Assembly (NCBI RefSeq): GCF_026125785.1
Contig: NZ_JAHCKL010000005.1
Span: forward strand, 165,398-229,397
Reading direction: 5' to 3'
DNA: 64,000 nt
Source of the DNA: Hydrogenophaga sp.
Lineage (GTDB): Bacteria; Pseudomonadota; Gammaproteobacteria; Burkholderiales; Burkholderiaceae_C
Positions 1-13,639 of the stretch are shown here, piece after piece; position 1 is the stretch's first letter; each line of letters opens with the position of its first letter. The notes beneath the pieces were generated by a model. That model did no database searches. It saw only the letters and a program-made list of their open reading frames with translations, and was not told the origin of the DNA. Made by a program: the position numbers and the translations under genes.

Positions 1-611
1 TCTGGGGCCTGCCGCACGAGCCCACGCCGCGCGAGAAGATCGCGGCCGGCTGCGACGTGGTGACCTTCAGCGGCGACAAGCTGCTGGGCGGACCGCAGGC
101 TGGCCTCATCGTGGGCAGCAAGGAGGCGGTGGGCCGCATCCGCAAGTTCCCGATGAAGCGCGCCTTGCGCATGAGCAAGCTGCCGCTGGCCGCGCTGGAG
201 GCCACGCTGATGCTCTACCTGCGGCCCGAACGCCTGGCGCAGGATCTGCCGACGCTGCGGCTGCTCACGCGCACGGCCGAGGCCATCCGCGAGCAGGCCG
301 ACAGCCTGCTCGCGGATGTGCAGAGCGCCGTGGCGCCGCGCTTCTCGGTGGAGGTGAAGGACATGCTGGGCCAGATCGGCTCGGGCTCGCTGCCGGTGGA
401 GCGCCTGCCATCGGCCGGCCTGGCGCTGGCGCCGGTTGGCAAGAAGGGCGCGGGACGCGCCCTGGACGAACTCGCTGCGGCGCTGCGCGCGCTGCCGCGC
501 CCCGTGATCGGGCGCGTGGCCGAAGACCGGCTGCTGCTCGACCTGCGCTGCCTTGAAGACAGCGCGGCCTTCGTGGCGCAGTTGCCTGCCCTGCGGCAGG
601 CGCTGGGCTGA
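1..611 (+). CDS. selA: L-seryl-tRNA(Sec) selenium transferase, 3' part
   Basis: SelA is the PLP enzyme that converts Ser-tRNA(Sec) to Sec-tRNA(Sec) using selenophosphate. The gene enters the window already in frame (codons run from base 3), so only the C-terminal ~200 residues are seen and the start lies outside. The segment FSGDKLLGGPQAG is the SelA signature around the PLP lysine (K in GDKLLG). LKRALR-type and LAALEATL-type motifs follow (here MKRALRMSKLPLAALEATL), as in bacterial SelA. The next gene begins 36 bp downstream on the same strand. selB and tRNA-Sec lie further down the same run of genes, which supports the identification. Nothing suggests a pseudogene in the visible part. Confidence 0.95.
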   Translation, partial: WGLPHEPTPREKIAAGCDVVTFSGDKLLGGPQAGLIVGSKEAVGRIRKFPMKRALRMSKLPLAALEATLMLYLRPERLAQDLPTLRLLTRTAEAIREQADSLLADVQSAVAPRFSVEVKDMLGQIGSGSLPVERLPSAGLALAPVGKKGAGRALDELAAALRALPRPVIGRVAEDRLLLDLRCLEDSAAFVAQLPALRQALG

Positions 612-647
612 CCGTTCCCCCACCCCAGGACAAGAGGAGCCTCGACG

Positions 648-1763
648 ATGAACACGCTGGATGCCCTGCAACCCATCATCACCGACACCTTGGAGCCGTT
701 GGCATTGCGCACCGATGCCGAGGCCCGTTTTCCTCGAGAGATGATCTCGGCACTGGGCCAGGCCGGGCTGCTCGGCCTGGTCAGCGCGGTGTCGGTGGGC
801 GGGCAGGGCAAGGGCCTGCGCGAGGCGGTCGACGTGGTGTCCCGCATCGCGCAGACCTGCCCATCCACGGCCATGGTGGTGTGCATGCACTACTGCGCCA
901 CCGCCGTCATCGAGGCGTTCGGGGCGGAGCCGGTGCGCCGCGCCATCGCGCAGGGGCAGCACCTGAGCACGCTGGCCTTTTCCGAGGCGGAATCGCGCAG
1001 CCACTTCTGGGCGCCTGTGGGGACGGCCAGCGCCGAGGGCGACGCCGTGGTGCTGGACGCGCGCAAGAGCTGGGTTACGTCCGCCTTTGAGGCCGACAGC
1101 TACGTCTGGTCCAGCAAGCCGCTGGCGGCCGAGGGTGCCAGCTCGCTGTGGCTGGTCGACGCGAAACTGCCAGGGTTGAGCCAGCCTGGTCATTTCGATG
1201 GCCTGGGCCTGCGTGGCAATGCGTCCACGCCCATCACCGCGAAAGGCGTGCGCGTGAAGGCCGGTGACCGCCTGGGCGAGGATGGCAAGGGCTTTGACAC
1301 CATGATGGGCGTGGTGCTGCCCTGGTTCGTGTCGCTGAGCGCGGCCTGCTCGGTTGGGATCATGGAAGGCGCCATCGCGCGTGCCGCCGGCCATGCCGGC
1401 GGAACCCGGCACCAGCACCTGGGTTCGTCGCTGGCCGATCTGCCCACCATCCGCGCCTACCTTGCGCGCGCCCGCATCAAGGCGGACATGTCGCGCGCGC
1501 TGCTCGACGACACCGTGGCCGCGATCGGCGCGGGCCGGCCGGACACCATGCTGCGGGTCCTGGAGGTCAAGGCCGCGGCGGCGGAGCACGCGCTGGAGGT
1601 CACCGACATCGCCATGCGGGTGTGCGGCGGCGCGGCGTTCCGCAAGGAAGCCGGCATCGAGCGTCTGTTCCGCGATGCGCGCGCCTCCAGCGTGATGGCG
1701 CCGACTTCCGATGTGCTGTACGACTTCATCGGCAAGGCCGTCACCGGCCTGCCGCTGTTCTAG
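648..1763 (+). CDS. Acyl-CoA dehydrogenase-fold flavoprotein, probably not a dehydrogenase
   Basis: This 371-residue protein has the acyl-CoA dehydrogenase fold throughout: an N-terminal helical domain, a beta domain around TLAFSEAESRSHFWAP, and a C-terminal helical domain ending in RLFRDARASSVMAPTSD. In true acyl-CoA dehydrogenases the last motif reads like YEGT, with Glu as the catalytic base. Here the aligned residue is Ala351. Loss of that Glu is typical of the flavin-dependent monooxygenase branch of the fold (DszC and SfnB type), which acts on organosulfur compounds. A strong AGAGGAG site lies 12 bp before the ATG. It follows selA by 36 bp and precedes a PhnD-like gene by 11 bp. An oxidative role on an organoselenium or organosulfur substrate is inferred from context only. 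Confidence 0.75.
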   Translation: MNTLDALQPIITDTLEPLALRTDAEARFPREMISALGQAGLLGLVSAVSVGGQGKGLREAVDVVSRIAQTCPSTAMVVCMHYCATAVIEAFGAEPVRRAIAQGQHLSTLAFSEAESRSHFWAPVGTASAEGDAVVLDARKSWVTSAFEADSYVWSSKPLAAEGASSLWLVDAKLPGLSQPGHFDGLGLRGNASTPITAKGVRVKAGDRLGEDGKGFDTMMGVVLPWFVSLSAACSVGIMEGAIARAAGHAGGTRHQHLGSSLADLPTIRAYLARARIKADMSRALLDDTVAAIGAGRPDTMLRVLEVKAAAAEHALEVTDIAMRVCGGAAFRKEAGIERLFRDARASSVMAPTSDVLYDFIGKAVTGLPLF

Positions 1764-1774
1764 GGGGTACCCAC

Positions 1775-2635
1775 ATGACCCGTGACACGCTGCTGATGGG
1801 GGCTGTGGCCTACGCGCCCAAGGTGGTCACCATCTGGGAGGGCTTCAAGGCGCACTTCCACCGCCACGGCCTGGCCTTCGACTACGTGCTGTATTCCAAC
1901 TACGAACGCCAGGTGCAGGCGCAGTTCGAAGGGGCCATTCACCTCGCCTGGAATTCGCCATTGGCCTGGGTGCGCGCCGAGCGCATCGCGCGCCACCGTG
2001 GGCAGACGGTGGCGGCGGTGGCCATGCGCGACACCGACTGCGACCTGCGCTCGCTGGTGGTGGTGCGGGCCGACAGCGCGGTGCAGTCGCTGGCCGACCT
2101 GCGTGGGCGCACCGTGGGTGTGGGCGCGATCGATTCGCCACAGGCCACGCTGATCCCCCTGGGCCAGTTCCGCGCCGAGGGCCTGGTGCCCGGCCGGGAC
2201 TTCACCGTGCGCCGCTTCGACGTGCTTGGCGGCAAGCATGGCGACCACATCGGCGGCGAGCGCGATGCCGCGACCGCGCTGATGGCCGGGGAGGTGGATG
2301 CGTGCTGCCTGATCGATGGCAATCACCTGGCCTTCGGCCTCGATGGCACGCTGCCGCCGGGAGCCACCCGCATCGTGGCGCGCACGGGGGCATACGACCA
2401 CTGCAACTTCACCACCAGCCCGGACGCGCCCCAGGCGCTGGTCGATCGCTTCGTGGCCCTGCTGATGGCCATGCGCTGGGACGATCCGCAGGTACGACCC
2501 TTGCTGGAACTGGAGGGCCTGCGCGAGTGGCGCTGCGGCCGCACCAGTGGCTATGCGTTGCTGGAGCGCGCGGTCGACGACGAGGGGTTCTACAGCCATG
2601 ATGGCGACATCCTCCCGGCCGACTATCGGTATTGA
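1775..2635 (+). CDS. PhnD-like (phosphonate-type) binding protein without signal peptide
   Basis: This is a 286-residue periplasmic-binding-protein-fold protein of the PhnD/phosphite-phosphonate group. Typical segments are AWNSPLAWVRA, DLRGRTVGVGAIDSPQATLIPL and GEVDACCLIDGNH. The ATG at 1775 is chosen because it starts 11 bp after the preceding stop and leaves a complete domain; longer in-frame starts would lie inside the upstream gene. The N-terminus (MTRDTLLMGAVAYAPK) runs straight into the first beta strand, with no signal peptide or membrane segment, so the protein should stay in the cytoplasm. That is unusual for this family, and the operon encodes a second, exported PhnD-like protein. 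It could be an intracellular ligand sensor or carrier, or a diverged enzyme; I cannot tell which. Confidence 0.7.
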   Translation: MTRDTLLMGAVAYAPKVVTIWEGFKAHFHRHGLAFDYVLYSNYERQVQAQFEGAIHLAWNSPLAWVRAERIARHRGQTVAAVAMRDTDCDLRSLVVVRADSAVQSLADLRGRTVGVGAIDSPQATLIPLGQFRAEGLVPGRDFTVRRFDVLGGKHGDHIGGERDAATALMAGEVDACCLIDGNHLAFGLDGTLPPGATRIVARTGAYDHCNFTTSPDAPQALVDRFVALLMAMRWDDPQVRPLLELEGLREWRCGRTSGYALLERAVDDEGFYSHDGDILPADYRY

Positions 2636-3803
2636 GGCGCTGGGCCTGGACCAGGGCGCGCTGCTGCTGATCCGCCGTGCGCTGGCGCGGGTGCCGGCGG
2701 GTGGCGAACTGGTGGTGTACGGCCACGCGCCAGGCTGGTACGACCACCTGGCCGCCTGGTGCCGCCAGACCGGCCATGGCCTGCGCATGGAGGCCGGGCA
2801 GGCGGTGGTGACCCGCGGCGCGCAGGCCGAAGGGCGCTGGCGCGGCGCCCTGGACAGTGGCCCCGCGCGCGTGGATGCCACACACCCGCCTGCGCAGGAG
2901 GCCCAGGCCTGCTGGGGGCTGGCCGCGCGCGGCGCGCGGGTGGAGGCGGGCAGCCCGGCATGGGCCTTTGCGCTGCGCCGCCGCCATGAGCTGTGGGCCG
3001 AGACGGCGGGAGAGCTGCACCGCCAGGCCATGGCCGCGCAATGGGACCCGCAGACCGCGATCGACTGGGAGGAGCCGTTCACGCTGGACGACGAGGTCGA
3101 GGACGCGGTGGTGCAGGTGATGACCTACCTGATCGAGAACGAGAACGCGGCGCTGCTGGTGCCCGCGCGCCACCTGGGCCAGATCCATCCCCACTACCGC
3201 GAGGTGCTGCAGTGCCTGGCGCAGCAGTGTGCCGACGAAGCCCGCCATGTGGAGGTGTTCACCCGCCGCGCGCTGCTGCGCGGGCGTGCGCCCGCACTGT
3301 CCACTGCGGGCGGGCAGGCCTCGCTGCAGACCTTGTTCGACGCGCCCGATTTTTCGGTGGCGACGTTTCTGCTCGGTGTGTTGGGCGAAGGCAGTTTCGT
3401 CAACCTGCTCAACTTCCTGCATGAGCATGCGCCCGATCCGGTCACGCGCCAGATCGCCCGCCTGACCGCGCGCGACGAGGCCCGCCATGTCGCGTTCGGC
3501 ATGGCCCACCTGGAGTACCGGCTCTCGGTGGAGCCCGGCTTTCAGACGCGCCTTCGCAACGCCGTGGAACTGCGCTACGACGCCCTGGCAGGCACCGCCG
3601 GACTCAACGAGGAGGTCTTCGATGCGCTGGTGCTGCTGGCGGCGGGCGCGCTGTCGCCGCAGGCCATCGCGCGCGGCCACGCCGCCGTGCAGGACCTCAA
3701 GGCCGAAATGGCCACCGGCCGGCGCGCACGCCTGGCGCGCCTGGGTTTTGCCCGCGAGGAGGCGCAGCGCCTGGCGGATCTGCACACGCGCAACTTCATG
3801 TGA
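2601..3803 (+). CDS. TusA-like domain fused to di-iron ferritin-like domain
   Basis: This 400-residue two-domain protein starts at either of two adjacent ATG codons (2598 or 2601), overlapping the upstream gene by about 35 bp. Residues ~10-72 align with TusA/SirA: ALGL, then a helix, then an AGGELVVYG strand, then AAWCRQTGHGL. The sulfur-carrying Cys of the TusA CPxP motif is replaced (ALGLDQG, Gln18), while the second TusA-type Cys is kept (Cys54). Residues ~150-390 form a four-helix ferritin-like di-iron domain with Glu179/181, EARH at 213-216, Glu263 and DEARH at 292-296. TusA-family proteins carry sulfur, and YedF is a selenium-linked member. Ferritin-like domains of this type bind oxygen-activating iron pairs. 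The fusion and its place in a sel operon suggest oxidative handling of selenium or sulfur; the reaction is unknown. Confidence 0.75.
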   Translation: MATSSRPTIGIEALGLDQGALLLIRRALARVPAGGELVVYGHAPGWYDHLAAWCRQTGHGLRMEAGQAVVTRGAQAEGRWRGALDSGPARVDATHPPAQEAQACWGLAARGARVEAGSPAWAFALRRRHELWAETAGELHRQAMAAQWDPQTAIDWEEPFTLDDEVEDAVVQVMTYLIENENAALLVPARHLGQIHPHYREVLQCLAQQCADEARHVEVFTRRALLRGRAPALSTAGGQASLQTLFDAPDFSVATFLLGVLGEGSFVNLLNFLHEHAPDPVTRQIARLTARDEARHVAFGMAHLEYRLSVEPGFQTRLRNAVELRYDALAGTAGLNEEVFDALVLLAAGALSPQAIARGHAAVQDLKAEMATGRRARLARLGFAREEAQRLADLHTRNFM

Positions 3804-3855
3804 CCCCGTGACGACGCGCCGATTTTTCCCGCAACCACAAAGAAGGAGACCCGCC

Positions 3856-5211
3856 ATGAGCCTTGATCGCCGCCATTTCCTCGCAGCCGGTGCCGGTGCC
3901 GCCGGTGCACTGCTCGCCGGCTGCGCTTCCACAGGGCCAGCCGCATCCCGCCCCGCGCAGCCGTTCTTCATTGGCAGCCCCGCGCAGATGCTGATGCCCA
4001 AGGGCAAGGCACCCCGCGTGGTGGTGTGTGGCGGCGGCTGGGGCGGCCTCACCACGGCCAAGTACCTGCGCCAGCTTGCACCCTCGGCCGAGGTGGTGCT
4101 GCTGGAGCGCAACCCGGTGTTCTTCTCCTGCCCGATCAGCAACAAGTGGCTGGTCGACATGGTGGACACCAGCTTCATCACGCACGACTACCTGCGCGTG
4201 TCGGCCCAGCACGGCTACCGCTTCGTGCAGTGCGAGGTGCTGGAGATCGACCGCGGCGCCCGGCGCGTGGTGACCAGCCAGGGCGCGCTGGACTACGACT
4301 ACCTGGTGATCGCGCCCGGCATCCGCTACAACTACGAAGCCTGGTTCGGCAACGACCGCGCCATCGCGGACGCCACCCGCACGCGCTTTCCGGCCGCCTA
4401 CGTGAGCAACGCCGAACACTTTGCCCTGAAGAAGGCCTTGCACGGCTTCAAGGGCGGTGACTGGGTGATGACGCTGCCGCCGCCACCGCAGCGCTGCCCG
4501 CCTTCGCCCTATGAACGGGCCTGCATGGTGGCTTGGTACTTCAAGGCCAACAAGATCAAGGGCCGGGTCACCATCCTGGACCACAAGGACGGTGTGCGCC
4601 CCATCGGCCCGGGTTTCAGGGCCGCCTTCACCGAGCTCTACAAGGACTACATCACCTACGTGCCCAATGCGCACGTGCAGTCCATAGACCCGTTCAAGAA
4701 GGAAATCAAGACCGATGCGGGCGACATGAAGTTCGACCATGCCGTGCTGATGGCGCCCCACCAGGCCGGCGACCTGGCCTGGAAGGCCGACGCCATCGGC
4801 CTGAACTCCCAGGGCAAGTACACCGGCTGGGCCGACGTCGACCCGCTGATGCTGAACCTCAAGAACGACCCGAACGTCTACGTGATCGGCGACGCCGTGG
4901 GCTTCGTCTCGCCGCAGTTCGCCTTCTACCCCAAGAGCGCCCACGTGGCCAACCAGCATGGGCACATCGTCGCGGCCTACATCGCCGAACGCGTGGCTGG
5001 CCGCAGCCCCAAGGCCACGCTGCCCGACAACCTCTGCTACATGATGGTCAACGGCGATCCGCGCGAGGCCATCAGCGTGCAGTTCGACTACAAGGTCAAC
5101 GCCCAGGGCGTGATCGAGCAGACGCAGATCGACATCAACCAGCGCAGCGCGGACCTGGTGCGCGAGAACTTCCGCTGGGCCGGTCTGAAGTTCGACGACA
5201 TGTTCTCCTGA
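3856..5211 (+). CDS. Exported FccB/sulfide dehydrogenase-like FAD oxidoreductase
   Basis: This 451-residue flavoprotein of the flavocytochrome c sulfide dehydrogenase (FccB/SoxF) group oxidises sulfide-like substrates outside the cytoplasm in known members. The N-terminus carries a twin-arginine motif (DRRHFL) and a lipobox-like LAGC (Cys23), so a Tat-exported lipoprotein is possible. The FAD-binding GGGWGG lies at 59-64 and the second nucleotide-binding stretch VYVIGDAVGF near 341-350. The family motif RCPPSPYER carries Cys214, one half of the redox disulfide known from FccB. The partner Cys, usually within a GWCPVD-type motif, is Ala326 here (GWADVD). The ATG at 3856 sits 8 bp behind AGAAGGAGA. 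Substrate may be sulfide or selenide; the lost Cys argues for altered chemistry. Confidence 0.8.
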   Translation: MSLDRRHFLAAGAGAAGALLAGCASTGPAASRPAQPFFIGSPAQMLMPKGKAPRVVVCGGGWGGLTTAKYLRQLAPSAEVVLLERNPVFFSCPISNKWLVDMVDTSFITHDYLRVSAQHGYRFVQCEVLEIDRGARRVVTSQGALDYDYLVIAPGIRYNYEAWFGNDRAIADATRTRFPAAYVSNAEHFALKKALHGFKGGDWVMTLPPPPQRCPPSPYERACMVAWYFKANKIKGRVTILDHKDGVRPIGPGFRAAFTELYKDYITYVPNAHVQSIDPFKKEIKTDAGDMKFDHAVLMAPHQAGDLAWKADAIGLNSQGKYTGWADVDPLMLNLKNDPNVYVIGDAVGFVSPQFAFYPKSAHVANQHGHIVAAYIAERVAGRSPKATLPDNLCYMMVNGDPREAISVQFDYKVNAQGVIEQTQIDINQRSADLVRENFRWAGLKFDDMFS

Positions 5212-5257
5212 TTCACCGCCTCCCCACCCCGCAACCTCACCTGAAAGGCTCCACCAC

Positions 5258-6133
5258 ATGAACTCCATCCTCCACCGCGTCGCCCGTCGGGCGCGCCTGC
5301 TGACCGCCGTGGCGGCCTTGTCTTTGTGTGCGGGCGCGCATGCGCAGGCCAGCTTCAAGGTCACCACCATCCCGGAAGAGGCGGCCTCGGAGCAGATCCG
5401 CAAGTTCGGCCCGATGGTGAAGTACCTGGAGCGCAGCCTGGGCACCAAGGTGGAGTTCGTGCCCGTCAGCGATTACCCCGCAGCCGTGGAGGCGCTGGTG
5501 AACAAGCAGGTGGACCTGGTCTGGTTCGGCGGCTTTACCTTCGTGCAGGCCAAGCTGCGCTCCGGCGACAAGGTGGTGCCGCTGGTGCAGCGCGAGGAAG
5601 ACACACAGTTCCGCTCCGTGTTCATCACGCAGAAGGACTCGGGCATCAAAACCCTGGCCGACCTCAAGGGCAAGCAGGTGAGCTTCGGTTCGGCCTCCAG
5701 CACCTCCGGCCACCTCATGCCGCGCAGCTTCCTGCTGGAGGCGGGCATCGAGCCCGAGCGCGACTTCAAGCGCGTGGCCTTCTCCGGCGCGCACGACGCC
5801 ACCATCGCCTCGGTGGTCAGCGGCCGTGTGGACGCCGCCGCGCTGGACATCACGGTCTGGCGCAAGTTCGTGAGCGAGAACAAAGTCGACACGAGCAAGG
5901 TGGACGTGTTCTACACCACGCCGCCGTACTTCAACTACAACTGGTCGGTGCATGCGGACATGCCAGCGGCGCAGCGCGAGAAGGTGACAAAGGCCCTGCT
6001 GGCGCTGAGCACAGACAACCCCGAGGGCAAGGAGGTCCTGGGGCTGGCGCGCGCCACGCGCTACGTGCCCACCAAACCCGAAAACTACAAGGGGCTGGAG
6101 GCCGCGGGCCGCAGCGCGGGCCTGATCAAATGA
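5258..6133 (+). CDS. Periplasmic PhnD-type binding protein, putative selenium-compound importer
   Basis: This 291-residue substrate-binding protein of the phosphate/phosphonate (PhnD) family has an N-terminal signal peptide (RRARLLTAVAALSLCAGAHA, cleavage after AHA). Family segments visible are LVNKQVDLVWFGGFTFVQA, DLKGKQVSFGSASSTSGHL and VVSGRVDAAALDITVW. A GAAAGG site precedes the ATG. The stop overlaps the start of the ATPase gene (ATGA), and both permeases follow, so this is the binding component of the importer. A PhnD-related group in genomes with Sec machinery is annotated as putative selenate ABC transporter binding protein; that is recalled, not checked. The context between selA and selB fits, but phosphonate, phosphite or an organoselenium ligand remains possible. 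Confidence 0.85.
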   Translation: MNSILHRVARRARLLTAVAALSLCAGAHAQASFKVTTIPEEAASEQIRKFGPMVKYLERSLGTKVEFVPVSDYPAAVEALVNKQVDLVWFGGFTFVQAKLRSGDKVVPLVQREEDTQFRSVFITQKDSGIKTLADLKGKQVSFGSASSTSGHLMPRSFLLEAGIEPERDFKRVAFSGAHDATIASVVSGRVDAAALDITVWRKFVSENKVDTSKVDVFYTTPPYFNYNWSVHADMPAAQREKVTKALLALSTDNPEGKEVLGLARATRYVPTKPENYKGLEAAGRSAGLIK

Positions 6134-6969
6134 GTGGTCTGGCGGTCGAGCTCGATCGCCTGGGCGTGAGGCATCCGGCCGCACGCGACGGTGCCGCGCC
6201 CGCGCTGGCGGACTTGAGCGTGCGGGTGGCGCCCGGCGAACAGGTGGTGGTGATCGGCCCCTCGGGGGCTGGCAAGACCACGCTGTTGCATGCGCTGGGC
6301 TGTGCCCTGCCACCTTCGGCTGGCAGCCTGCGCCTGGATGGGCAAGACCCCTGGACACTGGGCGCGGCGGACCTGCGCCGCCTGCGCGCACGGCTGTTTC
6401 TGGCGCCGCAGACGCCACCGCTGCCTCCGCGCCAGCGCGTGGTGACTTCGGTGCTGGCGGCGCGGCTGCCGCAGATGGGGCTGTGGGCCAGCCTGGCCTC
6501 GCTGGTGCATCCGCGCGGTGCGCCGCAGGCGCATGCGGCGCTGGAGCGCTTCGATCTGGGCGACAAACTGTGGGAGCGGGTGGACAGGCTTTCCGGCGGC
6601 GAGCGCCAGCGCGTGGGCCTGGCCCGTGCGCTGCTCGCGCCGGCCGCGCTGTGGCTGATCGACGAACCGCTCTCGGCCCTGGATCCGGCGCGCGCCACCC
6701 TGGCGCTGCGCGCGCTCACGCAAGTGGCGCGGGAGCGGGGCGTGACCCTGTTGGCCACCCTGCACCAGGTGGACCTGGCGCTGGCGAACTTTCCGCGCGT
6801 GCTGGGTCTGCGCGATGGCAGGCTCGCGTTCGACCTGCCTGCGGAGCAGGTGACGCCGGCTCTGCTGGCCGAGCTCTACGCCAGCTTCGAACACGAGCTG
6901 CAGGGGCTGGCGCCGCAGGCCGAGGCCCCTGTGGCCGGTACGGCGGCCGCACCCGCCATGCACTGTTGA
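6130..6969 (+). CDS. PhnC-type ABC transporter ATP-binding protein
   Basis: This 279-residue ABC ATPase couples ATP hydrolysis to import through the two permeases encoded downstream. Walker A is GPSGAGKT at 43-50, the ABC signature LSGGERQ at 154-160 and Walker B LWLIDEP at 174-180. The start at 6130 overlaps the preceding stop by 4 bp (ATGA), which implies translational coupling to the binding-protein gene; longer in-frame starts inside the upstream gene are not credible. The closest family is PhnC, the ATPase of phosphonate-type importers. The C-terminus has a short Ala/Pro-rich tail after the catalytic core. Confidence 0.9.
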   Translation: MSGLAVELDRLGVRHPAARDGAAPALADLSVRVAPGEQVVVIGPSGAGKTTLLHALGCALPPSAGSLRLDGQDPWTLGAADLRRLRARLFLAPQTPPLPPRQRVVTSVLAARLPQMGLWASLASLVHPRGAPQAHAALERFDLGDKLWERVDRLSGGERQRVGLARALLAPAALWLIDEPLSALDPARATLALRALTQVARERGVTLLATLHQVDLALANFPRVLGLRDGRLAFDLPAEQVTPALLAELYASFEHELQGLAPQAEAPVAGTAAAPAMHC

Positions 6970-6978
6970 GTCCGCCGC

Positions 6979-7809
6979 ATGGGCACGCACGCGATCAACA
7001 TCCACCGCGACCCGGCCTGGCGCGGCCGTGTGTTCTGGACCCTGGCCGCCGCCGCGCTGCTGGGGCCCGCGCTGGTGGCGGTGGAGTTCAAGGTCTGGCT
7101 GCTGTTCGCGCCCGACAACCTGCGTGTCACCCTGCGTTTCCTCGGCGACTTTCTGCCGCCGGCCATGTCGGCCGAGTTCCTCTCGATGGTGCTGCGCGAA
7201 ACCTGGCGCACCGTTGCCATCGCTTCGGCGGCCATGGTGCTGGCGCTGCTGCTGGCGGTTCCACTGACGCTGCTGTCGAGCGCGGCGCTCTCGGTGTCTT
7301 CGCTTTCGGGCCGCATGCACCCTCTGGCCTGGGCGGTGCGGCAGGCCGTGCGCCTGTTGCTGGTGGTGCTGCGCAGCGTGCCGGAGCTGGTGTGGGCTCT
7401 GGTGTTCGTGCGCGTGGTCGGCCTGGGACCCAGCGCGGGTGTGCTGGCGATCGCACTCACCTACGCAGGCATGCTGGGCAAGGTGTACGGGGAGATCCTG
7501 GAGAGCGGCGACCTGCATCCCACACGCTCGCTGCTGCGCAACGGCAGCGGCCGCCTGCAGGCGTTTCTCTATGCGTTGCTGCCCGGCAATTCGCGCGAAC
7601 TCACCAGCTACACCGTGTACCGCTGGGAGTGCGCGATCCGATCATCGGCGGTGCTGGGCTTCGTCGGCGCTGGCGGCCTGGGTCAGCAGCTCGACGCGTC
7701 GATGAAGATGTTCAACGGCGGCGAGGTGGCCACCATCCTCGTGGCTTTCGTGCTGCTGGTGGCGCTGGCCGATGCGGTCAGCGCGCAACTGCGCAAGGCC
7801 CTGGGTTGA
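6979..7809 (+). CDS. PhnE-type ABC transporter permease 1
   Basis: This is a 276-residue inner-membrane permease with several hydrophobic segments, including one near residues 10-35 and one near 75-95 (IASAAMVLALLLAVPLTLLSS). The PhnE-type signature FVGAGGLGQQL near residue 230 and the EAA-like cytoplasmic loop (YALLPGNSRELTSYTVYRWE) place it in the phosphonate-type permease family. The gene starts 9 bp after the ATPase stop. It is followed 11 bp later by a second permease with the same motifs, so the importer channel is probably a heterodimer. Confidence 0.88.
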   Translation: MGTHAINIHRDPAWRGRVFWTLAAAALLGPALVAVEFKVWLLFAPDNLRVTLRFLGDFLPPAMSAEFLSMVLRETWRTVAIASAAMVLALLLAVPLTLLSSAALSVSSLSGRMHPLAWAVRQAVRLLLVVLRSVPELVWALVFVRVVGLGPSAGVLAIALTYAGMLGKVYGEILESGDLHPTRSLLRNGSGRLQAFLYALLPGNSRELTSYTVYRWECAIRSSAVLGFVGAGGLGQQLDASMKMFNGGEVATILVAFVLLVALADAVSAQLRKALG

Positions 7810-7820
7810 AGGGGCGCTCC

Positions 7821-8630
7821 ATGAACGCGAGACAACCGACCCTGCCGCCCCAGCCGCCCCGTGCCTGGGGTGTGCGGCTGTTGCTCCTGGGCATGGTGGT
7901 GCTGGCGGTCGCCAGCTTCGTCGAGGTCGGGGTGGACTGGGGGCGCCTGTTCTCGGTGGATGCCGCGCAGAAGATGGGTCGCTTCCTGGGCGAGATGGCT
8001 CAGCCTGCCATGGAGCCCGCGTTCCTGGCGCGGCTGGGCATCGCGACACTGGAGACGCTGGCCATGTCGGCCGTAGGCACTTTGCTGGCGGCCGTGTTCG
8101 GTCTGCTGCTGGCCTTGCCGGCCAGCCGCCTGCCAGGCCAGACCGCAGGGCTGTGGCGTGCGCCCACGCGCTGGTTGCTCAATGTGTTGCGCTCCATTCC
8201 TGAACTGGTGTGGGCCGCGCTGCTGCTCATCTCGGCAGGGCTCGGACCGCTCGCGGGCACATTGGCGCTGGCGCTGCACACCACCGGTGTCCTGGGGCGT
8301 CTCTTTGCCGAAGTGATCGAGAACGCGCCCGATGGACCGGCGTTCGCGTTGCGCGTGCAGGGCGTGCCCGGCGGCCGGGCCTTTCTCTATGCCACCTTTC
8401 CGCTGGCACTGCCGCAGTTGCTGTCCTACACGCTCTACCGCTGGGAAAACAACATCCGTGCGGCGGCGGTGCTCGGCGTCGTGGGCGGCGGCGGCCTGGG
8501 CCAGATGCTGTCCTACCACATGGGGTTGTTCCATATGCGCGAGACTGGCGGCATTCTGTTGGCCACCATCCTGCTGGTGGCCTTGGTGGACCTGCTGTCC
8601 ACCGTCGCGCGAAAGGTACTCAACCCATGA
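7821..8630 (+). CDS. PhnE-type ABC transporter permease 2
   Basis: This 269-residue inner-membrane permease is homologous to the preceding one: [33 protein letters not shown] and [11 protein letters not shown] match its LRSVPELVWALVF, YALLPGNSRELTSYTVYRWE and FVGAGGLGQQL. The ATG at 7821 follows the upstream stop by 11 bp and gives a normal PhnE-like length. Its stop codon overlaps the selB start (ATGA at 8627-8630). That overlap is the best sequence evidence that the transporter and the Sec elongation factor belong to one transcript. Confidence 0.88.
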
Positions 8631-10552
8631 TCGTCGGAACGGCCGGCCACATCGACCACGGAAAGACCACGCTGGTGCGCGCGCTCACCGGCGTGGACAC
8701 CGATCGCCTGCCGGAGGAAAAGCAGCGCGGCGTGTCCATCGAACTGGGCTATGCCTTCACCGATGCGCCGGACGGCCAGCGCATCGGCTTCATCGATGTG
8801 CCAGGCCACGAGCGCCTGGTCCACACCATGCTGGCCGGTGCCACCGGCATCGATTTCGCCCTGCTGCTCGTCGCCGCCGACGACGGTGTGATGCCGCAGA
8901 CGCGCGAGCATCTGGCCGTGCTGTCCCTGCTGGGCCTGCGGCGGGGCGTGGTGGCCCTGACCAAGTGCGACCGGGCGGATGCGGCGCGCCTGCGGTCCGT
9001 GGCCGATGACGTGGCCGCGCTGCTCGAAGGCACCTCGCTGGCGGGGGTGCCGGTGCTGCCCGTGTCGGCCCAGACCGGCGAAGGTATCGAAGCCCTCAAG
9101 GACGTGCTGTTCCAGGCCGCGCGAGAGACCGGCGCGCATGCGCGCCTGAACGAGTCTTTCCGCCTCGCGGTGGACCGCGCGTTCACGCTCGACGGCGTGG
9201 GCACCGTGGTCACCGGGACCGTGCACGCAGGCCAGGTGCGGGTGGGCGACGAACTCCAGCTCGTGCCAGGCGAACGGCGGGCGCGTGTGCGCAGCCTGCA
9301 CGCGCAGAACCGCGCCGTCGCCACGGCGCAGGCCGGCCAGCGCTGCGCGGTGGCACTGGCGGGCGTGGAGCGGCAAGAGATCGAGCGCGGCCAGTGGCTG
9401 TGCCTGCCGGCCATGGCCATGGCGAGCGAGCGCGTGGACGTGCAGTTGACGCTCTGGCAAGGCGAGGCGCGGCCGCTGCGCTCCGGCGCGAGCGTGCACG
9501 TGCACCTGGGCTCGGCATCGGTGTTGGGCACGGTGGCGGTGCTGGACCCACCGGCGCTGGAGCCCGGCCAGAGCGGGCGCGTGCAACTTGTGTTGCGCAA
9601 GCCGCTGGGCGTGTGGCATGGCGACCGTGTGGTGCTGCGCGACGCATCGGCCTCGCGCACGCTGGCCGGTGGCCGTGTGCTGGACCCGTGCGCGCCGGTG
9701 CGCTACCGACGCACGCCGCAGCGCCTGGCCGAACTCGATGCCCTGAGCCAGCCAGACGCGCGCTCGCGTCTGGCGGCGCTGCTCGCCGTGGCGCCTCAAG
9801 GCCTGGACCTGCGCCGCTTCGCGGCCGCGCAAGGCCAGGCGGTGGTGGACGAACTGCCCGCTGGCGCGCTGCGCCACAGCGATGCGCACGCGGACGTGGC
9901 GCTGGGCGCGGCGCAGACCGAGCAGGCCGAGGCGCGTGTCGTCCAGGTGCTGGCCGACTACCACGCGCGCCACACCGAGGAACTGGGGCCGGACAGTGCG
10001 CGGCTGCGCCGCCTGGCTCTGCCGCGCCTGTCCGAGCCGCTGTGGCGCGCCTTGCTGGCGCGCCTGCAGGCGGCCGCGCGGGTGCAGGTGCGTGGTGCGT
10101 TCGTGCACCTGCCCGAACATGGCGTGCGCCTGTCGGCCACCGAGGAACGCCTGGCGCAGAAGGTGGCCGCACCGTTGCTGGCGGCTGGCTTCGAGGGGGC
10201 GTGGGTGCGCGACCTGGCGCGCGACAGTGGCGAGCCTGAAGCGCTGATGCGTGTCACGCTCGTTCGGCTGTCGCAGCGCGGCGAGCTCTACCAGGTGGTC
10301 AAGGACCTCTACTACCCGCCGGCCACCATGGCTCGGCTGGCCGTCATCGCGCGCACCGTGGCTGCCGGGCAGGGCGGAGCGGTGGCGGCCGCCGCGTTCC
10401 GCGACGCGACCGGCCTGGGCCGCAAGCGCGCAATACAGATACTGGAGCACTTCGACCGCATCGGCCTGTTGCGCCGTGTGGGCGATGCGCATTGGCTGCG
10501 TGCCGACAGTCAGCTTTTCCTGGACGACGCGCGGGCGGAGGCACCGCTATGA
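8627..10552 (+). CDS. selB: Selenocysteine-specific elongation factor SelB
   Basis: SelB is the GTPase that delivers Sec-tRNA(Sec) to UGA codons followed by a SECIS hairpin. The 641-residue protein opens directly with the G1 motif ([13 protein letters not shown]), then has DVPGHERLV (G3) and TKCD (G4). Domains II/III come next, then the C-terminal winged-helix repeats that bind SECIS RNA (the last ~250 residues, including [16 protein letters not shown] and [22 protein letters not shown]). Length is normal for SelB. The start codon overlaps the stop of the upstream permease gene. The tRNA-Sec gene follows after 19 bp, so decoding factor and tRNA sit together as in many selB-selC loci. Confidence 0.97.
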
Positions 10553-10571
10553 TCGGCCAGTCGGTTTTTGC

Positions 10572-10667
10572 GGAGGGGAAACGATCCTGGTGGGTCGGCC
10601 GGGCTTCAAACCCGGTGGGTGGCGCCATGCGTCGCCGGGTGGGTTCGACTCCCATTCTCCTCCGCCA
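10572..10667 (+). tRNA. selC: tRNA-Sec (UCA anticodon)
   Basis: The RNA is 96 nt including an encoded CCA. The 8-bp acceptor stem pairs GGAGGGGA with TCTCCTCC (one G-U pair), longer than the 7 bp of ordinary tRNAs and typical of bacterial tRNA-Sec. The anticodon stem CCGGG/CCCGG encloses CTTCAAA, giving anticodon TCA at 10606-10608. A long variable arm contains GGCG/CGCC. The T arm carries GGTTCGACTCC. Discriminator base G precedes CCA. The overall pattern matches E. coli selC by recall. Confidence 0.97.
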
Positions 10668-10739
10668 CTGGATGACGCTCTCCTCTGCGCGGTGTTCCTG
10701 GATGCGACCCGTGCGCTCTTGGCCGAACCCTTGTTGAAC

Positions 10740-11183
10740 ATGGACCGCTTCTTGGCCGACTTTCCTGCCGGTTTGCTCTACCACGTCGAGCACCAGGTGT
10801 GGGCGCGGGTGGAGGCGCCCGACGTCGTGACCGTGGGCATCACGGCCCTGGGCATCAAGCTCTCGGGTGAAATCTACATGTGCCGCGCCCGGCCACTGGG
10901 CACGGTGGTGGAGCAGGGCCGCTCGATCGGGGTGGTGGAGCTGGCCAAGTCCATCGTGTCGGTGAAGGCGCCGCTGTCGGGCACGGTGATCGAGGCCAAC
11001 CCGGTGCTGGCGCAGCGGCCCGAGCGCGTGCACGAGGACCCGTATGGCGAGGGCTGGATCGCTCGCCTGCGACCCTCGGCGCTGGAGGCCGAGCGCGCGG
11101 CCTTGCTCCAAGGCGAAGCCGTGTTCGCGGCCATGGCGGAACACGCGCGCCTGCACCGCATCCAGATCGAACACCATGCCTGA
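10740..11183 (+). CDS. GcvH-like lipoyl-carrier protein
   Basis: This 147-residue protein has the glycine-cleavage H-protein/lipoyl-domain fold. The segment VVELAKSIVSVKAPLSGTVIEAN aligns with the lipoylation site of GcvH (AVESVKAASDIYAPVSG), placing the lipoyl lysine at Lys70. No other glycine-cleavage genes are nearby. GcvH-like proteins outside the gcv operon include the lipoate-binding proteins (LbpA) of sulfur-oxidising sHdr systems, where they work with TusA and DsrE proteins. A DsrE-like gene overlaps the 3' end here and a TusA-like fusion is encoded upstream. A role as a lipoyl carrier of reduced sulfur or selenium is therefore an attractive inference. A stray H-protein paralogue is the alternative. 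Confidence 0.8.
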   Translation: MDRFLADFPAGLLYHVEHQVWARVEAPDVVTVGITALGIKLSGEIYMCRARPLGTVVEQGRSIGVVELAKSIVSVKAPLSGTVIEANPVLAQRPERVHEDPYGEGWIARLRPSALEAERAALLQGEAVFAAMAEHARLHRIQIEHHA

Positions 11184-11568
11184 CACGCACGAGGCCAGCG
11201 GCATTGCCATCCTGCTGTGGGCGGCCGAACCCGAGGCCCCGCACCGGCTGGCCACACCTTTCTTCCATGCCGCTGCTGCTGCCGCCATGGACGTGCCGGT
11301 GGAAATCTATTTCACGGCCCGCAGCGTGCACCTGCTGGTGCCGGGCGTGGCCCAGGGCCTGCGGGCCAGCGAACGGTTCGACAAGACCGTGCTCGATGCC
11401 ATGCGGGAAGCGGTGTCGCATGGCGCGCGCCTGCTGGCCTGCACCGATGCGCTGCACGCGCAGGGCATCGATCCGCGCGGACTGATCCCCGAGTGCAGCG
11501 GCCATGGTGGCGCGGTGCAGTTCATGGCCCGCGCGTCAGATCTGCGCTGGCGCACACTGGTTTTCTGA
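11176..11568 (+). CDS. DsrE-family protein
   Basis: This 130-residue protein has a DsrE/YchN-type alpha-beta fold: an IAILLWAAEPEAPHRLATPF strand-helix start, a FTARSVHLL strand, a SHGARLLACTDALHAQGI segment with one Cys, and a C-terminal strand. DsrE-family proteins pass persulfide sulfur in thiosulfate- and sulfide-oxidising pathways. The Cys in LLACTDAL is in the usual active region, and a second lies in IPECSG. The ATG at 11176 overlaps the stop of the GcvH-like gene by 8 bp, so the two are translationally coupled. The nitroreductase gene follows after 2 bp. Chalcogen transfer is the inferred role. Confidence 0.75.
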   Translation: MPDTHEASGIAILLWAAEPEAPHRLATPFFHAAAAAAMDVPVEIYFTARSVHLLVPGVAQGLRASERFDKTVLDAMREAVSHGARLLACTDALHAQGIDPRGLIPECSGHGGAVQFMARASDLRWRTLVF

Positions 11569-11570
11569 CG

Positions 11571-12149
11571 ATGTCCACTGCCGACGCGCGCTCCTCCATC
11601 CTGGCCAACCTGAACAGCCGTTTCTCGGTCGGTGCCAAACACCTGGCCGAGCCCGCACCCTCGCCGCAGGACCTGCAAGGCATGGCACAGGCCGCTTTGC
11701 GCGCTCCCGACCACGCGGGCCTGGTGCCGTTTCGCTTCGCAATCGTCCGCGGCGCGGCGCGAGAACGCCTGGCCGACCTGTTCGAGCAGGCCGCCGTGCA
11801 GGCCGGAAAGACCGCCGACGAAGCCGTGCTCGACCGCCGCCGCGCGCTCGAACCGCCGCTGCTGGTGGCGGTGATCGCGCGCATCGACACCGGCCACCCC
11901 GTGGCCAGCGTGCACGAACAATGGATGACCGTGGGCGGCGCGCTCACCAATTTCCTCAACGCGGCCCACGCGCTGGGCTACGCCGGCAAGATGCTGTCGG
12001 GTGCCAAGGTGCGCGCCGCACCCATCGTGGCCGCGTTCTGCGGCCCCGGCGAAAGCCTGGTGGGCTGGGTGGTGATGGGCACCGCGCGCAAGATCGGCAC
12101 ACCAAAATTCCAGAAGCCCGGACCGGACGAGGTGCTGCGCGACTGGTGA
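11571..12149 (+). CDS. Nitroreductase-family flavoprotein
   Basis: This 192-residue protein is of the FMN-dependent nitroreductase family. It has an N-terminal RFSVGAKHLAEPAPS segment, a central LLVAVIARI strand, WMTVGGALTNFLNAAHALGYAGKM (the family dimer/FMN helix) and C-terminal GWVVMGTARK. Family members reduce nitro compounds, quinones or flavins with NAD(P)H. It is the last gene of the rightward run. An 84-bp hairpin repeat starts 14 bp past the stop and probably ends transcription. Reductive handling of a selenium oxyanion or supply of reduced flavin to the monooxygenase-like protein are context-based guesses. Confidence 0.85.
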   Translation: MSTADARSSILANLNSRFSVGAKHLAEPAPSPQDLQGMAQAALRAPDHAGLVPFRFAIVRGAARERLADLFEQAAVQAGKTADEAVLDRRRALEPPLLVAVIARIDTGHPVASVHEQWMTVGGALTNFLNAAHALGYAGKMLSGAKVRAAPIVAAFCGPGESLVGWVVMGTARKIGTPKFQKPGPDEVLRDW

Positions 12150-12163
12150 CCGCAGGCCAGTGC

Positions 12164-12387
12164 AGCGTGGGGGCCACAGACCCCGCCGCCGGGCCGCCCC
12201 AAGGCGGGGTCAGCCCCCTCGGGGGGCAGCGACCCGCGCAGCGGCGGAGCGTGGGGGCCACAGACCCCGCCGCCGGGCCGCCCCAAGGCGGGGTCAGCCC
12301 CCTCGGGGGGCAGCGACCCGCGCAGCGGTGGAGCGTGGGGGCAACAGACCCCACCGCCGGGCCGCCCCAAGGCGGGGTCAGACCCCC
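12164..12387. repeat. 84-bp tandem repeat, 2.7 copies, hairpin-forming
   Basis: Two full 84-bp units (starting at 12164 and 12248) and a shorter third (12332) are nearly identical. Each unit holds two GC-rich hairpins: CCGCC-CCAA-GGCGG and GCCCCC-TCG-GGGGGC. The array sits between convergent genes (nitroreductase and the ModE-like regulator), so it may act as a bidirectional terminator. Similar GC-rich hairpin sequences are frequent between genes in Comamonadaceae, by recall. Confidence 0.9.
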
Positions 12388-13509
12388 TCACCCCCACCAC
12401 GGCAGCAGGCGCTTCATGGCCGTGATGTCGCCGCAGTGGTCGGCCGCGTAGCCGGGCAGGGCGTTGAGCTGTTCCTGCCACGCGCGGCTGCGCAGGCGCC
12501 GCACCAGGTACTGCGCGGGTGTGCGCTCCAGGGTGCTCTTGAGGCAGGCGAGCACGTAGCGTTCCTCGGTCAGGGGCACGAAGTCCAGTCCGTGCGCGCT
12601 GGCCGCGTATTCGGTGCCCAGGCCCGCATCGGCCGTGCCGCAGGCCACGCTCAGGGCCACGGCGGCGTGCGTGGGCTCCACGCGCGAGTGGCCGTCGATG
12701 GCCTGGGGCTGCACACCGGCCTGGGCCAGCAGTTCGTCGAACAGCAGACGGGTCCCGGTGCCGATGCCGCGGTTGACGAAGCGTGCCCGCTTCTGTGCCA
12801 GGTCGGCGACGGTGCGCAGGCCCAGTGGGTTGCCTGGCGCCACCAGCAGTCCCTGGACACGCTGCGCGAAACCGATGAGCTTGTGCAGCCCCGGCTTGAG
12901 CAGAGGCCGGTGGCTGCGTGCGCTCAGGCTGCCTGCGGTGGCGAAGGACTGGGTGTGAAAGCCCGCCACATCGCAGCGCCCCTCGCTCAGGCTGCGGATC
13001 GCGTCCGTGCTGCCGCAGTAGCGGATGTCCAGGTGCAACGGCGGTGCGGGACTGCGTCCGCGCACGGGTTGGCTGCAGTGCTGCTGAAACACCCCCAACG
13101 CGAGGTCGTGGCTGGCGCACAGTGTGAGGTGGTTGCCAAGTGTCGCGTCTTCGTCAATGGCTTGTTCGTACGCGCGCGCCAGCGTGGTCTGCAACTGTTC
13201 GAGCTGCGGGGCCAGCCGCGCCTGGGCCATGCGTTCGGCCAGCAGCAGCCGCTCTCCGAAAGGCGTAAGCCGCGCGGCCTGCCCACGCTCCCAGAAAACC
13301 AGCGGCTGGCCCAATGGTCCTTCCCAAGCCTTGAGCTGGCCCCAGACATGGCGGTAGGACAGGCCCAGCGCACGCGCCGCACCCGAGATGGAGCCACTGG
13401 CATGCAACGCCTGCAACAGGTCCTGCATGGGGTTGCGCAGCAATGGTCCTTGTGCACTGTCGGGGTGGGCACCCGCGGTGTGGGTGTAGGAGAGCTCGAT
13501 CTTGCGCAT
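12388..13509 (-). CDS. ModE-like HTH regulator with substrate-binding domain
   Basis: This 373-residue regulator has an N-terminal winged helix of the ModE/LysR type (LQALHASGSISGAARALGLSYRHVWGQLKAWE, near residues 30-60). A periplasmic-binding-protein-like domain follows (LTLCASHDLALGVFQ through LPGYAADHCGDI, PF12727 type). Proteins of this layout often regulate molybdate or formate dehydrogenase genes. The ATG at 13509 (MRKIELSYTH) is preferred over longer in-frame starts because the domain begins soon after it. It converges on the selenium operon. A molybdenum-hydroxylase operon lies to its right, so molybdate or a related oxyanion is a reasonable ligand guess. Confidence 0.8.
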   Translation of the reverse strand: MRKIELSYTHTAGAHPDSAQGPLLRNPMQDLLQALHASGSISGAARALGLSYRHVWGQLKAWEGPLGQPLVFWERGQAARLTPFGERLLLAERMAQARLAPQLEQLQTTLARAYEQAIDEDATLGNHLTLCASHDLALGVFQQHCSQPVRGRSPAPPLHLDIRYCGSTDAIRSLSEGRCDVAGFHTQSFATAGSLSARSHRPLLKPGLHKLIGFAQRVQGLLVAPGNPLGLRTVADLAQKRARFVNRGIGTGTRLLFDELLAQAGVQPQAIDGHSRVEPTHAAVALSVACGTADAGLGTEYAASAHGLDFVPLTEERYVLACLKSTLERTPAQYLVRRLRSRAWQEQLNALPGYAADHCGDITAMKRLLPWWG

Positions 13510-13639
13510 GGGCTTCGAGTGTGCATGAAACGGTTCGCCCGGGCTTGCCCTGATCGCCGATCTGTGGGCATACTGGGCCGGCACATGCCCGCCATGTCAC
13601 CTCATCGTTCCACAACACAACACCATCAAGGAGTCTTCC

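What the first reader, a model, noticed from the sequence alone, without database searches (positions are those of the whole stretch)
1..12149. Selenium operon with an embedded ABC importer and redox module between selA and selB
The sequence shows selA, then eight genes, then selB and tRNA-Sec, all on one strand with short gaps and three ATGA overlaps, including permease 2/selB. Known sel loci usually have selA next to selB. The inserted set (flavin monooxygenase-like, leaderless and exported PhnD-like proteins, TusA-ferritin fusion, FccB-like, PhnC and two PhnE) makes sense as import and redox processing of a selenium compound that feeds Sec synthesis. A PhnD-like selenate-type binding family has been proposed before, by recall; the combined module is not one I know to be described.
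Basis: partly seen in the sequence, partly recalled or inferred. Interest (0 to 1): 0.88.

Follow-up and report, generated by a model that had tools for sequence, protein, structure and literature searches.

The report
Selenium uptake operon inside selenocysteine genes
Between two genes for making the amino acid selenocysteine, this bacterium carries an importer and three unstudied redox-type genes that in many other bacteria also sit beside selenium genes, which suggests a dedicated route for taking up and processing selenium.

Summary
In detail: selA, eight same-strand genes, selB and tRNA-Sec inside a larger fdh-sel operon, with two ATGA overlaps, not three. The eight genes are three separable units: an ACAD-like / leaderless PhnD-like / TusA-diiron "trio", an FccB-like lipoprotein, and a PhnDCEE importer whose binding protein passes NCBI's "putative selenate ABC transporter" model. 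Each recurs beside selenium genes. Of 80 trio loci read (of at least 359), 28 have selA, selB or selD in the flanks, in arrangements needing at least 10 changes on the tree. Of 48 searched trio genomes without such neighbours, 44 have selD, 40 selU and only 22 a clear tRNA-Sec, so the trio is not Sec-specific. The importer lies within 20 kb of selD or selB in at least 13 of 66 genomes. Best reading: a selenium acquisition system feeding SelD, in which an oxyanion-type importer works with a redox trio. NCBI had already proposed the importer's role; I found no report of the trio's selenium link (ten searches, open-licence papers only). Substrate and chemistry are untested.

The parts
3..611 (+). 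selA, 3' part (rest lies upstream of the window)
   Evidence: NCBIfam TIGR00474, 202.9 bits over the C-terminal 202 aa, below its cut-off of 267.9 because cut; full gene seen in L002
648..1763 (+). ACAD-fold flavoprotein (trio gene 1), without the acyl-CoA dehydrogenase catalytic Glu; closest NCBIfam is Rv1679/FadE16, below its cut-off
1775..2635 (+). leaderless PhnD-like protein (trio gene 2, 'SBPcyt'); closest NCBIfam is Rv1680 SBP-like, below its cut-off
   Evidence: model pLDDT 94 matches PhnD/PtxB/HtxB/ArrX
2598..3803 (+). TusA-like domain fused to an AurF/R2lox/ADO-like diiron domain (trio gene 3, 'TusFer'); the start codon is uncertain
3856..5211 (+). FccB-like flavoprotein with twin-arginine signal and lipobox
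   Evidence: PF21706 and PF07992; PDB match 5n1t; Cys 92, 214, 394; signal read by eye from the sequence
5258..6133 (+). exported PhnD-like binding protein, TIGR04553 'putative selenate ABC transporter substrate-binding protein'
   Evidence: 359.9 bits, cut-off 250
6130..6969 (+). PhnC-like ABC ATPase
   Evidence: TIGR02315 180 bits, cut-off 266.1
6979..7809 (+). PhnE-like permease 1
   Evidence: TIGR01097 202.9 bits, cut-off 216.7
7821..8630 (+). PhnE-like permease 2
   Evidence: TIGR01097 232.1 bits, cut-off 216.7
8627..10552 (+). selB
   Evidence: TIGR00475 473.7 bits
10571..10667 (+). selC, tRNA-Sec (anticodon TCA)
10740..11183 (+). GcvH-like (lipoyl-domain) protein, recurrent sel-locus companion
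   Evidence: PF01597; downstream of selB in L042, L044, L045, L046, L083, L084, L094
11176..11568 (+). DsrE-like protein, recurrent sel-locus companion
   Evidence: PF02635; within 2.3 kb of selB in 14 genomes, window included
11571..12149 (+). nitroreductase-family protein, syntenic in Hydrogenophaga flava L084 and Roseateles L094
   Evidence: PF00881

Best explanation
This is a selenium acquisition and processing set built into a formate dehydrogenase-selenocysteine operon. SHOWN: gene order, families and recurrent linkage of each unit to selA, selB or selD in other lineages. INFERRED: PhnD with PhnC and two PhnE imports a small selenium oxyanion or alkyl-selenium acid (three-oxygen selenite resembles phosphite in shape, so selenite or an alkylseleninate is at least as plausible as selenate). 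In the cytoplasm, the ACAD-fold flavoprotein and the TusA-diiron protein act oxidatively on a selenium compound that the leaderless PhnD-like protein binds or presents, and they release selenium in a form that reaches SelD. SelD then serves SelA here, and SelU in genomes that lack Sec. The FccB-like Tat lipoprotein handles selenide or sulfide outside the membrane.
For: Trio: 28 of 80 loci have selA, selB or selD in flanks averaging 17 kb in sum. Twelve are selA-trio-selB, four lie downstream of selB, eight lie within 1.2 kb before selD, four are other arrangements. The Se-linked label needs at least 10 changes on the trio tree and occurs on both sides of its (midpoint) root and in both large groups beyond it. 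selD is over cut-off in 44 of 48 searched trio genomes without neighbouring sel genes, against 215 of 300 in the order (p 0.0014, not matched for taxonomy). A trio-type ACAD-SBP pair (56-63% id) lies about 6-7 kb from selD-selA-selB in the actinobacterium Miltoncostaea. Importer: TIGR04553 over cut-off in 66 of 300 genomes, 60 of which have selD by E-value, against 155 of 234 others (one-sided Fisher p 2.5e-5, kinship not corrected); at least 13 of 66, window included, lie within 20 kb of selD or selB; mnmH-ABC-selD in Sphaerotilus. FccB-like: between selA and selB in L044, L045; beside PhnE2 and fdhA in L069; next to selA in Azoarcus.
Against: No substrate, expression or phenotype data. 52 of 80 trio loci have no sel gene within the flanks, and 4 of 48 searched genomes show no selD over cut-off (three are MAG records, G301, G323, G329, and one the draft Ideonella azotifigens, G341; G301 does have tRNA-Sec). 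Trio presence against selD is weak inside single groups: 5 of 5 against 210 of 295 (p 0.19) and 5 of 6 against 78 of 173 (p 0.08). 33 of 66 TIGR04553 genomes lack selB and 6 of 66 lack selD over cut-off. The more distant Rv1679-Rv1680-like pairs on a Mycolicibacterium and a Rhodococcus plasmid have no sel genes in the stretches read. In Aeromonas caviae L174 PhnDCEE has none of the sel or fdh genes tested within about 8 kb. PhnD relatives at under 60% identity are on 696 plasmid records, 568 of them Klebsiella, mostly not read. The SBPcyt loop is DSPQAT where the exported PhnD has SSTSG, so they need not share a ligand.
Confidence: 0.6

Rival explanations
1. The trio is a selenium homeostasis or damage-control set: it disposes of toxic or mis-made selenium species (methylselenol, selenols, excess selenite) and is co-expressed with selenium users, while PhnDCEE alone supplies selenium.
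For: The importer's PhnD is not within the flanks in 72 of 80 trio loci (some flanks are short). The trio proteins look oxidative rather than reductive (inference). It tracks selD rather than Sec.
Against: A position between selA and selB or just before selD (20 of 80 loci) fits supply better than disposal; this is an argument, not a test.
Confidence: 0.2
2. PhnDCEE imports phosphite or phosphonate and the sel linkage is incidental.
For: The family is PhnD/PtxB-like and its closest solved structures are named for phosphonate, phosphite or phosphate binding. PhnE2 passes the PhnE cut-off.
Against: PhnD, PhnC and PhnE1 miss the phosphonate cut-offs while TIGR04553 is passed. selD or selB is nearby in at least 13 of 66 genomes. 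None of the genes scanned between 3 and 14056 matched a phosphonate or phosphite breakdown family.
Confidence: 0.07
3. The trio protects or matures the oxygen-sensitive Sec enzyme (formate dehydrogenase) or its cofactor, and has no selenium substrate.
For: In the window and in 12 of 80 loci the trio lies between selA and selB, as a rule in an fdh-sel run.
Against: It sits just before selD with no fdh, selA or selB in the flanks in 8 of 80 loci, and 26 of 48 searched genomes have no clear tRNA-Sec.
Confidence: 0.08
4. The genes were inserted by chance or ride on an active promoter, with no functional link to selenium.
For: The insert is absent in a same-family genome (L042), so it is a gain or a loss in this lineage.
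Against: Repeated linkage in different arrangements. With three selenium loci per 4.5 Mb assumed, about 1 of 80 would be expected, 28 seen (kinship ignored).
Confidence: 0.05

Closest known systems
TIGR04553 putative selenate ABC transporter (NCBIfam)
   Same: Binding protein passes the model; PhnD-PhnC-PhnE-PhnE order recurs in 20 of 20 fetched TIGR04553 loci
   Different: Here it is inside selA-selB with the trio and an FccB-like gene; the substrate was only proposed by NCBI
Rv1679-Rv1680-Rv1681 of mycobacteria (NF049984, NF049985, NF049973)
   Same: ACAD-like gene followed by a leaderless PhnD-like gene
   Different: Scores lie below both cut-offs; the third gene is radical SAM there and a TusA-diiron fusion here; no sel genes among the features read in the M. 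vanbaalenii stretch
Ssu/Tau/Sfn sulfur acquisition operons (recalled)
   Same: ABC importer for a small oxyanion acid plus flavin or iron oxygenases that free the chalcogen
   Different: ACAD-like protein scores 68 bits against SfnB's cut-off of 431; linkage here is to selenium genes
DszC/DszB (recalled)
   Same: ACAD-fold monooxygenase beside a leaderless binding-protein-fold enzyme
   Different: ACAD-like protein scores 48 bits against DszC's cut-off of 850; no DszB row among the 50 structure rows shown, which does not exclude it
SirA/TusA-like and YedE/YedF selenium candidates (PMC2432076, PMC5322559; passages)
   Same: TusA/SirA-like and DsrE domains linked to selD
   Different: The TusA-like domain here is fused to a diiron domain and lacks the CPxP Cys; the word 'ABC' does not occur in the main text of either paper
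Flavocytochrome c sulfide dehydrogenase FccB
   Same: Fold and family, Cys pattern
   Different: No cytochrome FccA gene directly beside it in the window; Tat lipoprotein in a sel operon

Membership tests
Selenocysteine decoding locus | selA, selB and selC present, selD in the genome | tested here: met
Selenocysteine decoding locus | UGA-containing selenoprotein gene | tested here: met
   fdhA open in one frame on both sides of an in-frame TGA, upstream of fdhB; SECIS not modelled
TIGR04553 putative selenate importer | score over the curated cut-off | tested here: met
   359.9 bits, cut-off 250
TIGR04553 putative selenate importer | binds or transports a selenium compound | not testable with these tools
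   needs binding and uptake assays
Phosphonate transporter PhnDCE | PhnD, PhnC and PhnE over NCBIfam cut-offs | tested here: not met
   PhnD 177.2 (cut-off 261.1), PhnC 180 (266.1), PhnE1 202.9 (216.7); PhnE2 alone passes, 232.1
Rv1679/Rv1680 pair | score over NF049984 and NF049985 cut-offs | tested here: not met
   405.2 (cut-off 600) and 227.8 (cut-off 400)
Acyl-CoA dehydrogenase | catalytic Glu in the C-terminal loop | tested here: not met
   SCAD IYEGTSEI aligns with VMAPTSDV; that this Glu is the catalytic base is recalled
TusA sulfurtransferase | Pfam TusA over gathering score and CPxP Cys | tested here: not met
   17.6 bits, gathering 28.6; no Cys at that place in 5 aligned proteins; motif recalled
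AurF-like diiron oxygenase | family score and conserved ExxH carboxylate pattern | tested here: met
   PF11583 32.8 bits, gathering 29.6; E180, E214-xx-H217, E264, E294-xx-H297 invariant in 42 rows (ligand roles recalled); diiron or Mn/Fe folds as best matches
AurF-like diiron oxygenase | binds metal and activates oxygen | not testable with these tools
   needs purified protein
Flavocytochrome c FccB | FCSD domain and cysteines | tested here: met
   PF21706 84.1 bits, gathering 27, Cys 92, 214, 394 (role recalled)
Flavocytochrome c FccB | partner cytochrome subunit gene adjacent | tested here: not met
   direct neighbours are the TusA-diiron and PhnD genes; the rest of the genome was not searched for it

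The most novel reading that the evidence does not exclude
A dedicated, aerobic selenium assimilation route: a high-affinity ABC importer for selenite or an alkyl-selenium acid, followed by oxidative cleavage of a carbon-selenium bond by an ACAD-fold monooxygenase and a TusA-diiron oxygenase with a cytoplasmic selenium-binding protein, delivering selenium to SelD. It would be the selenium counterpart of the Ssu/Tau sulfur systems.
Probability: 0.35. Interest if true: 0.9.

Novelty: new variant of a known kind. Interest (0 to 1): 0.72.

Why it matters
Reviews of 2022 and 2026 state that no (specific) high-affinity selenium transport system has been identified (PMC9312934, PMC13188914; passages). 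The co-localised importer and trio give named genes, cultured genera (Variovorax, Hydrogenophaga flava) and a simple readout (formate dehydrogenase activity, 75Se labelling) to test that open question. The trio would add three uncharacterised protein families to selenium metabolism, and its link to selD without Sec points to a general selenium supply role.

Tried and rejected
Rejected: that the eight genes are one conserved module (searches show three separable units). Rejected: strict Sec specificity of the trio. Rejected: TusA-type sulfur transfer by the N-terminal domain, because the CPxP Cys is absent. Rejected: acyl-CoA dehydrogenase activity. Led nowhere: clustering of other neighbours of the trio gave mostly antisense ORFs of high-GC genes, the sel and fdh genes, and clusters confined to near relatives; I saw no further widely shared partner, and my simple gene caller missed many genes (its TusA-diiron cluster held 48 of 80 loci). 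A DszB-like match for SBPcyt was looked for in the 50 rows shown in each and not seen; this does not exclude it. Papers: searches gave, in listings and passages, nothing on the trio and selenium, nor on TIGR04553 by accession; only open-licence PMC papers are covered. Promoter and terminator scan: no promoter-like site; 13 terminator-like sites against 5.3 expected in shuffles; those on the + strand lie inside genes, so I drew nothing from them.

Of the 52 loci without sel genes in the flanks, 49 were handed to and 48 searched (L136 not held); the other three (L101, L141, L144) are the contigs of G141, G133 and G257, whose selD is. In one search, 19 of 300 genomes matched; I counted the 5 full-length ones (E 1e-145 or lower, or near it) and left out one broken copy (G084, which has selD) and 13 weak matches. 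In one search, 43 of 179 matched; I counted the 6 strong ones (G331 is cut by a contig end). selD presence was read from best E-values (1e-80 or lower), since its table of places was cut; for the same reason 13 of 66 is a lower bound. Of the 20 importer loci fetched, 9 were chosen because searches already showed sel genes near; of the other 11, two have selD (70-71% identity) within 10 kb (L079, L080) and one a 35% SelD-like match (L075). The tree left out L144 (frame) and L153 (short).


Full report
What is there. The window begins inside selA (3-611). Eight genes follow on the same strand (648-8630), then selB (8627-10552) and tRNA-Sec (10571-10667), then a GcvH-like gene, a DsrE-like gene and a nitroreductase-family gene up to 12149. 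Gaps are 9-52 nt within the block. PhnD/PhnC and PhnE2/selB overlap by ATGA, the leaderless binding protein and the TusA-diiron gene overlap by 38 nt, and the GcvH-like and DsrE-like genes overlap by 8 nt. Upstream of the window, on the same strand, lie fdhA with an in-frame TGA, fdhB, fdhE and the rest of selA. selD is elsewhere in the genome. So the block sits inside a long fdh-sel run.

What the proteins are. The first gene has the ACAD fold, but the loop that holds the dehydrogenase glutamate reads MAPTSD instead of YEGTSE; its nearest curated family is Rv1679/FadE16 at 405 bits, cut-off 600. The second is a PhnD-like protein without signal peptide, nearest to Rv1680 SBP-like (228 bits, cut-off 400). 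Its model (pLDDT 94) matches PhnD, PtxB, HtxB and ArrX, but the loop that reads SSTSG in the exported PhnD reads DSPQAT here, and D120-S121-P122-Q123-A124, K154-H155-G156-D157-H158 and D208-H209-C210 are invariant in 42 homologues. The third joins a TusA-like domain without the usual Cys to a diiron-type helical domain (AurF family 32.8 bits, gathering 29.6; best structure matches R2-like oxidases, aldehyde-deformylating oxygenases and azoxy synthase VlmB). The fourth is FccB-like with a twin-arginine signal and lipobox. The last four are PhnD (TIGR04553, 360 bits, cut-off 250), PhnC, PhnE and PhnE. Names of catalytic motifs are recalled.

The block is a composite. A same-family genome has fdhA-fdhB-fdhE-selA-selB-selC-GcvH-DsrE with no insert (L042, 62-91% identity). 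Hydrogenophaga flava has selA-trio-selB-GcvH-DsrE-nitroreductase-regulator, in the order of the window but without FccB-PhnDCEE (L084). Elsewhere FccB-like genes lie between selA and selB without trio or importer (L044, L045) and between PhnE2 and fdhA (L069).

The importer is selenium-linked. TIGR04553 is over cut-off in 66 of 300 genomes of the order, selB in 85 of 300, both in 33 (Fisher p 2e-5). selD is over cut-off in 215 of 300, and by E-value in 60 of the 66. At least 13 of the 66 carry it within 20 kb of selD or selB: G179, G102, G298, G269, G049, G058, G280, G171, G166 (selD) and G000 (the window), G184, G064, G218 (selB). On a Sphaerotilus plasmid the order is mnmH-ATPase-permease-binding protein-selD. 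Kinship was not corrected for in the Fisher tests. Against this, 33 of 66 lack selB and 6 lack selD, and an Aeromonas PhnDCEE (L174) has none of the tested sel genes within about 8 kb.

The trio is selenium-linked too. 69 have the ACAD-like gene and 77 the leaderless PhnD-like gene in the stretch held. In 28 of 80, selA, selB or selD lies in the flanks: selA-trio-selB in 12 (Variovorax, Hydrogenophaga flava, Rhizobacter, Roseateles, Pseudacidovorax), seven of which continue with selD and a divergent PhnDCEE; downstream of selB in 4 (Methyloversatilis, Hylemonella, Ideonella); just before selD in 8 (Xenophilus, Hydrogenophaga, Lampropedia, ALPHA2B); other arrangements in 4 (Azoarcus, Peristeroidobacter, Luteimonas). 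On a tree of 79 rows the linked state needs at least 10 changes, so the linkage was made or lost many times.

But the trio is not tied to Sec. G323, G329 and G341 lack selD, selU and a clear tRNA-Sec (G341 has one 47.5-bit match); G301 lacks selD but has tRNA-Sec. Inside single groups the trio-selD association is weak for want of numbers: 5 of 5 in the order (baseline 215 of 300, p 0.19) and 5 of 6 in the Caulobacteraceae sample (baseline 83 of 179, p 0.08).

Distant kin. In Miltoncostaea oceani, an actinobacterium, an ACAD-PhnD-like pair (56% and 63% identity) lies about 6-7 kb from selD-selA-selB, with other genes between. In Mycolicibacterium vanbaalenii a more distant pair of the Rv1679-Rv1680 families stands with a radical SAM gene (Rv1681 family) and near a deiodinase-like gene, and in Rhodococcus opacus a similar pair stands near a DoxX-family gene; no sel genes were among the features read there. 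So the pair may be the core, and the third partner varies.

How it most likely works. I infer that PhnDCEE brings in a small selenium acid and that the trio acts oxidatively on a selenium compound to make selenium available to SelD. The importer step is the better supported. The trio's chemistry rests on fold and on neighbours only. A homeostatic or clearing role for the trio is the main rival.

What is known. NCBI already names the binding protein family a putative selenate transporter. Comparative papers name YedE, YedF, DUF3343, LysR_Se and SirA-like proteins (passages of PMC5322559, PMC9312934, PMC2432076), and an ABC ATPase near orphan selD (passages of PMC5029168). None of the passages or listings that I saw names the trio. 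Two reviews say that no (specific) high-affinity selenium transport system has been identified (passages).

Noticed in passing
10740-11568: A GcvH-like and a DsrE-like gene follow tRNA-Sec. DsrE relatives lie within 2.3 kb of selB in 14 genomes (window included) of 61 with a DsrE match among 296 searched, and the four best matches (the query itself among them) are all there. This may be an unrecognised accessory pair of the Sec locus, reminiscent of lipoate-protein/DsrE sulfur relays (recalled).
   Followed up: partly
12388-13584 (-): Regulator with a LysR/ModE-like DNA-binding part and a PBP-like domain, 65% identical in Hydrogenophaga flava L084 at the same place and 38% beside fdhA in L050.
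   Followed up: partly
12164-12389: Tandem array, 84-bp unit, 2.7 copies, 97% matches, just after the nitroreductase gene.
   Followed up: no
L175 (Sphaerotilus sulfidivorans plasmid) 2421-7871: mnmH, ABC ATPase, a permease-subunit gene, a binding protein named putative selenate transporter and selD in one same-strand run.
   Followed up: yes
L173 (Mycolicibacterium vanbaalenii plasmid) 911-9264: Rv1679/Rv1680/Rv1681-family genes near a deiodinase-like gene, a glutaredoxin-domain gene, CcdA and a disulfide oxidoreductase.
   Followed up: partly
L145 and L154 (Lampropedia) about 11.2-13.4 kb: A second ACAD-like gene (55% identity) lies between the TusA-diiron gene and selD.
   Followed up: no
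G305, G308, G370 and others: selD in open frames of about 750-865 aa, possibly fusions to another domain.
   Followed up: no
plasmids collection: Relatives of the exported PhnD at under 60% identity are on 696 plasmid records, 568 of them Klebsiella and 530 records typed conjugative; 13 of the 15 rows shown are annotated 'putative selenate ABC transporter substrate-binding protein'. The Klebsiella contexts were not read.
   Followed up: no
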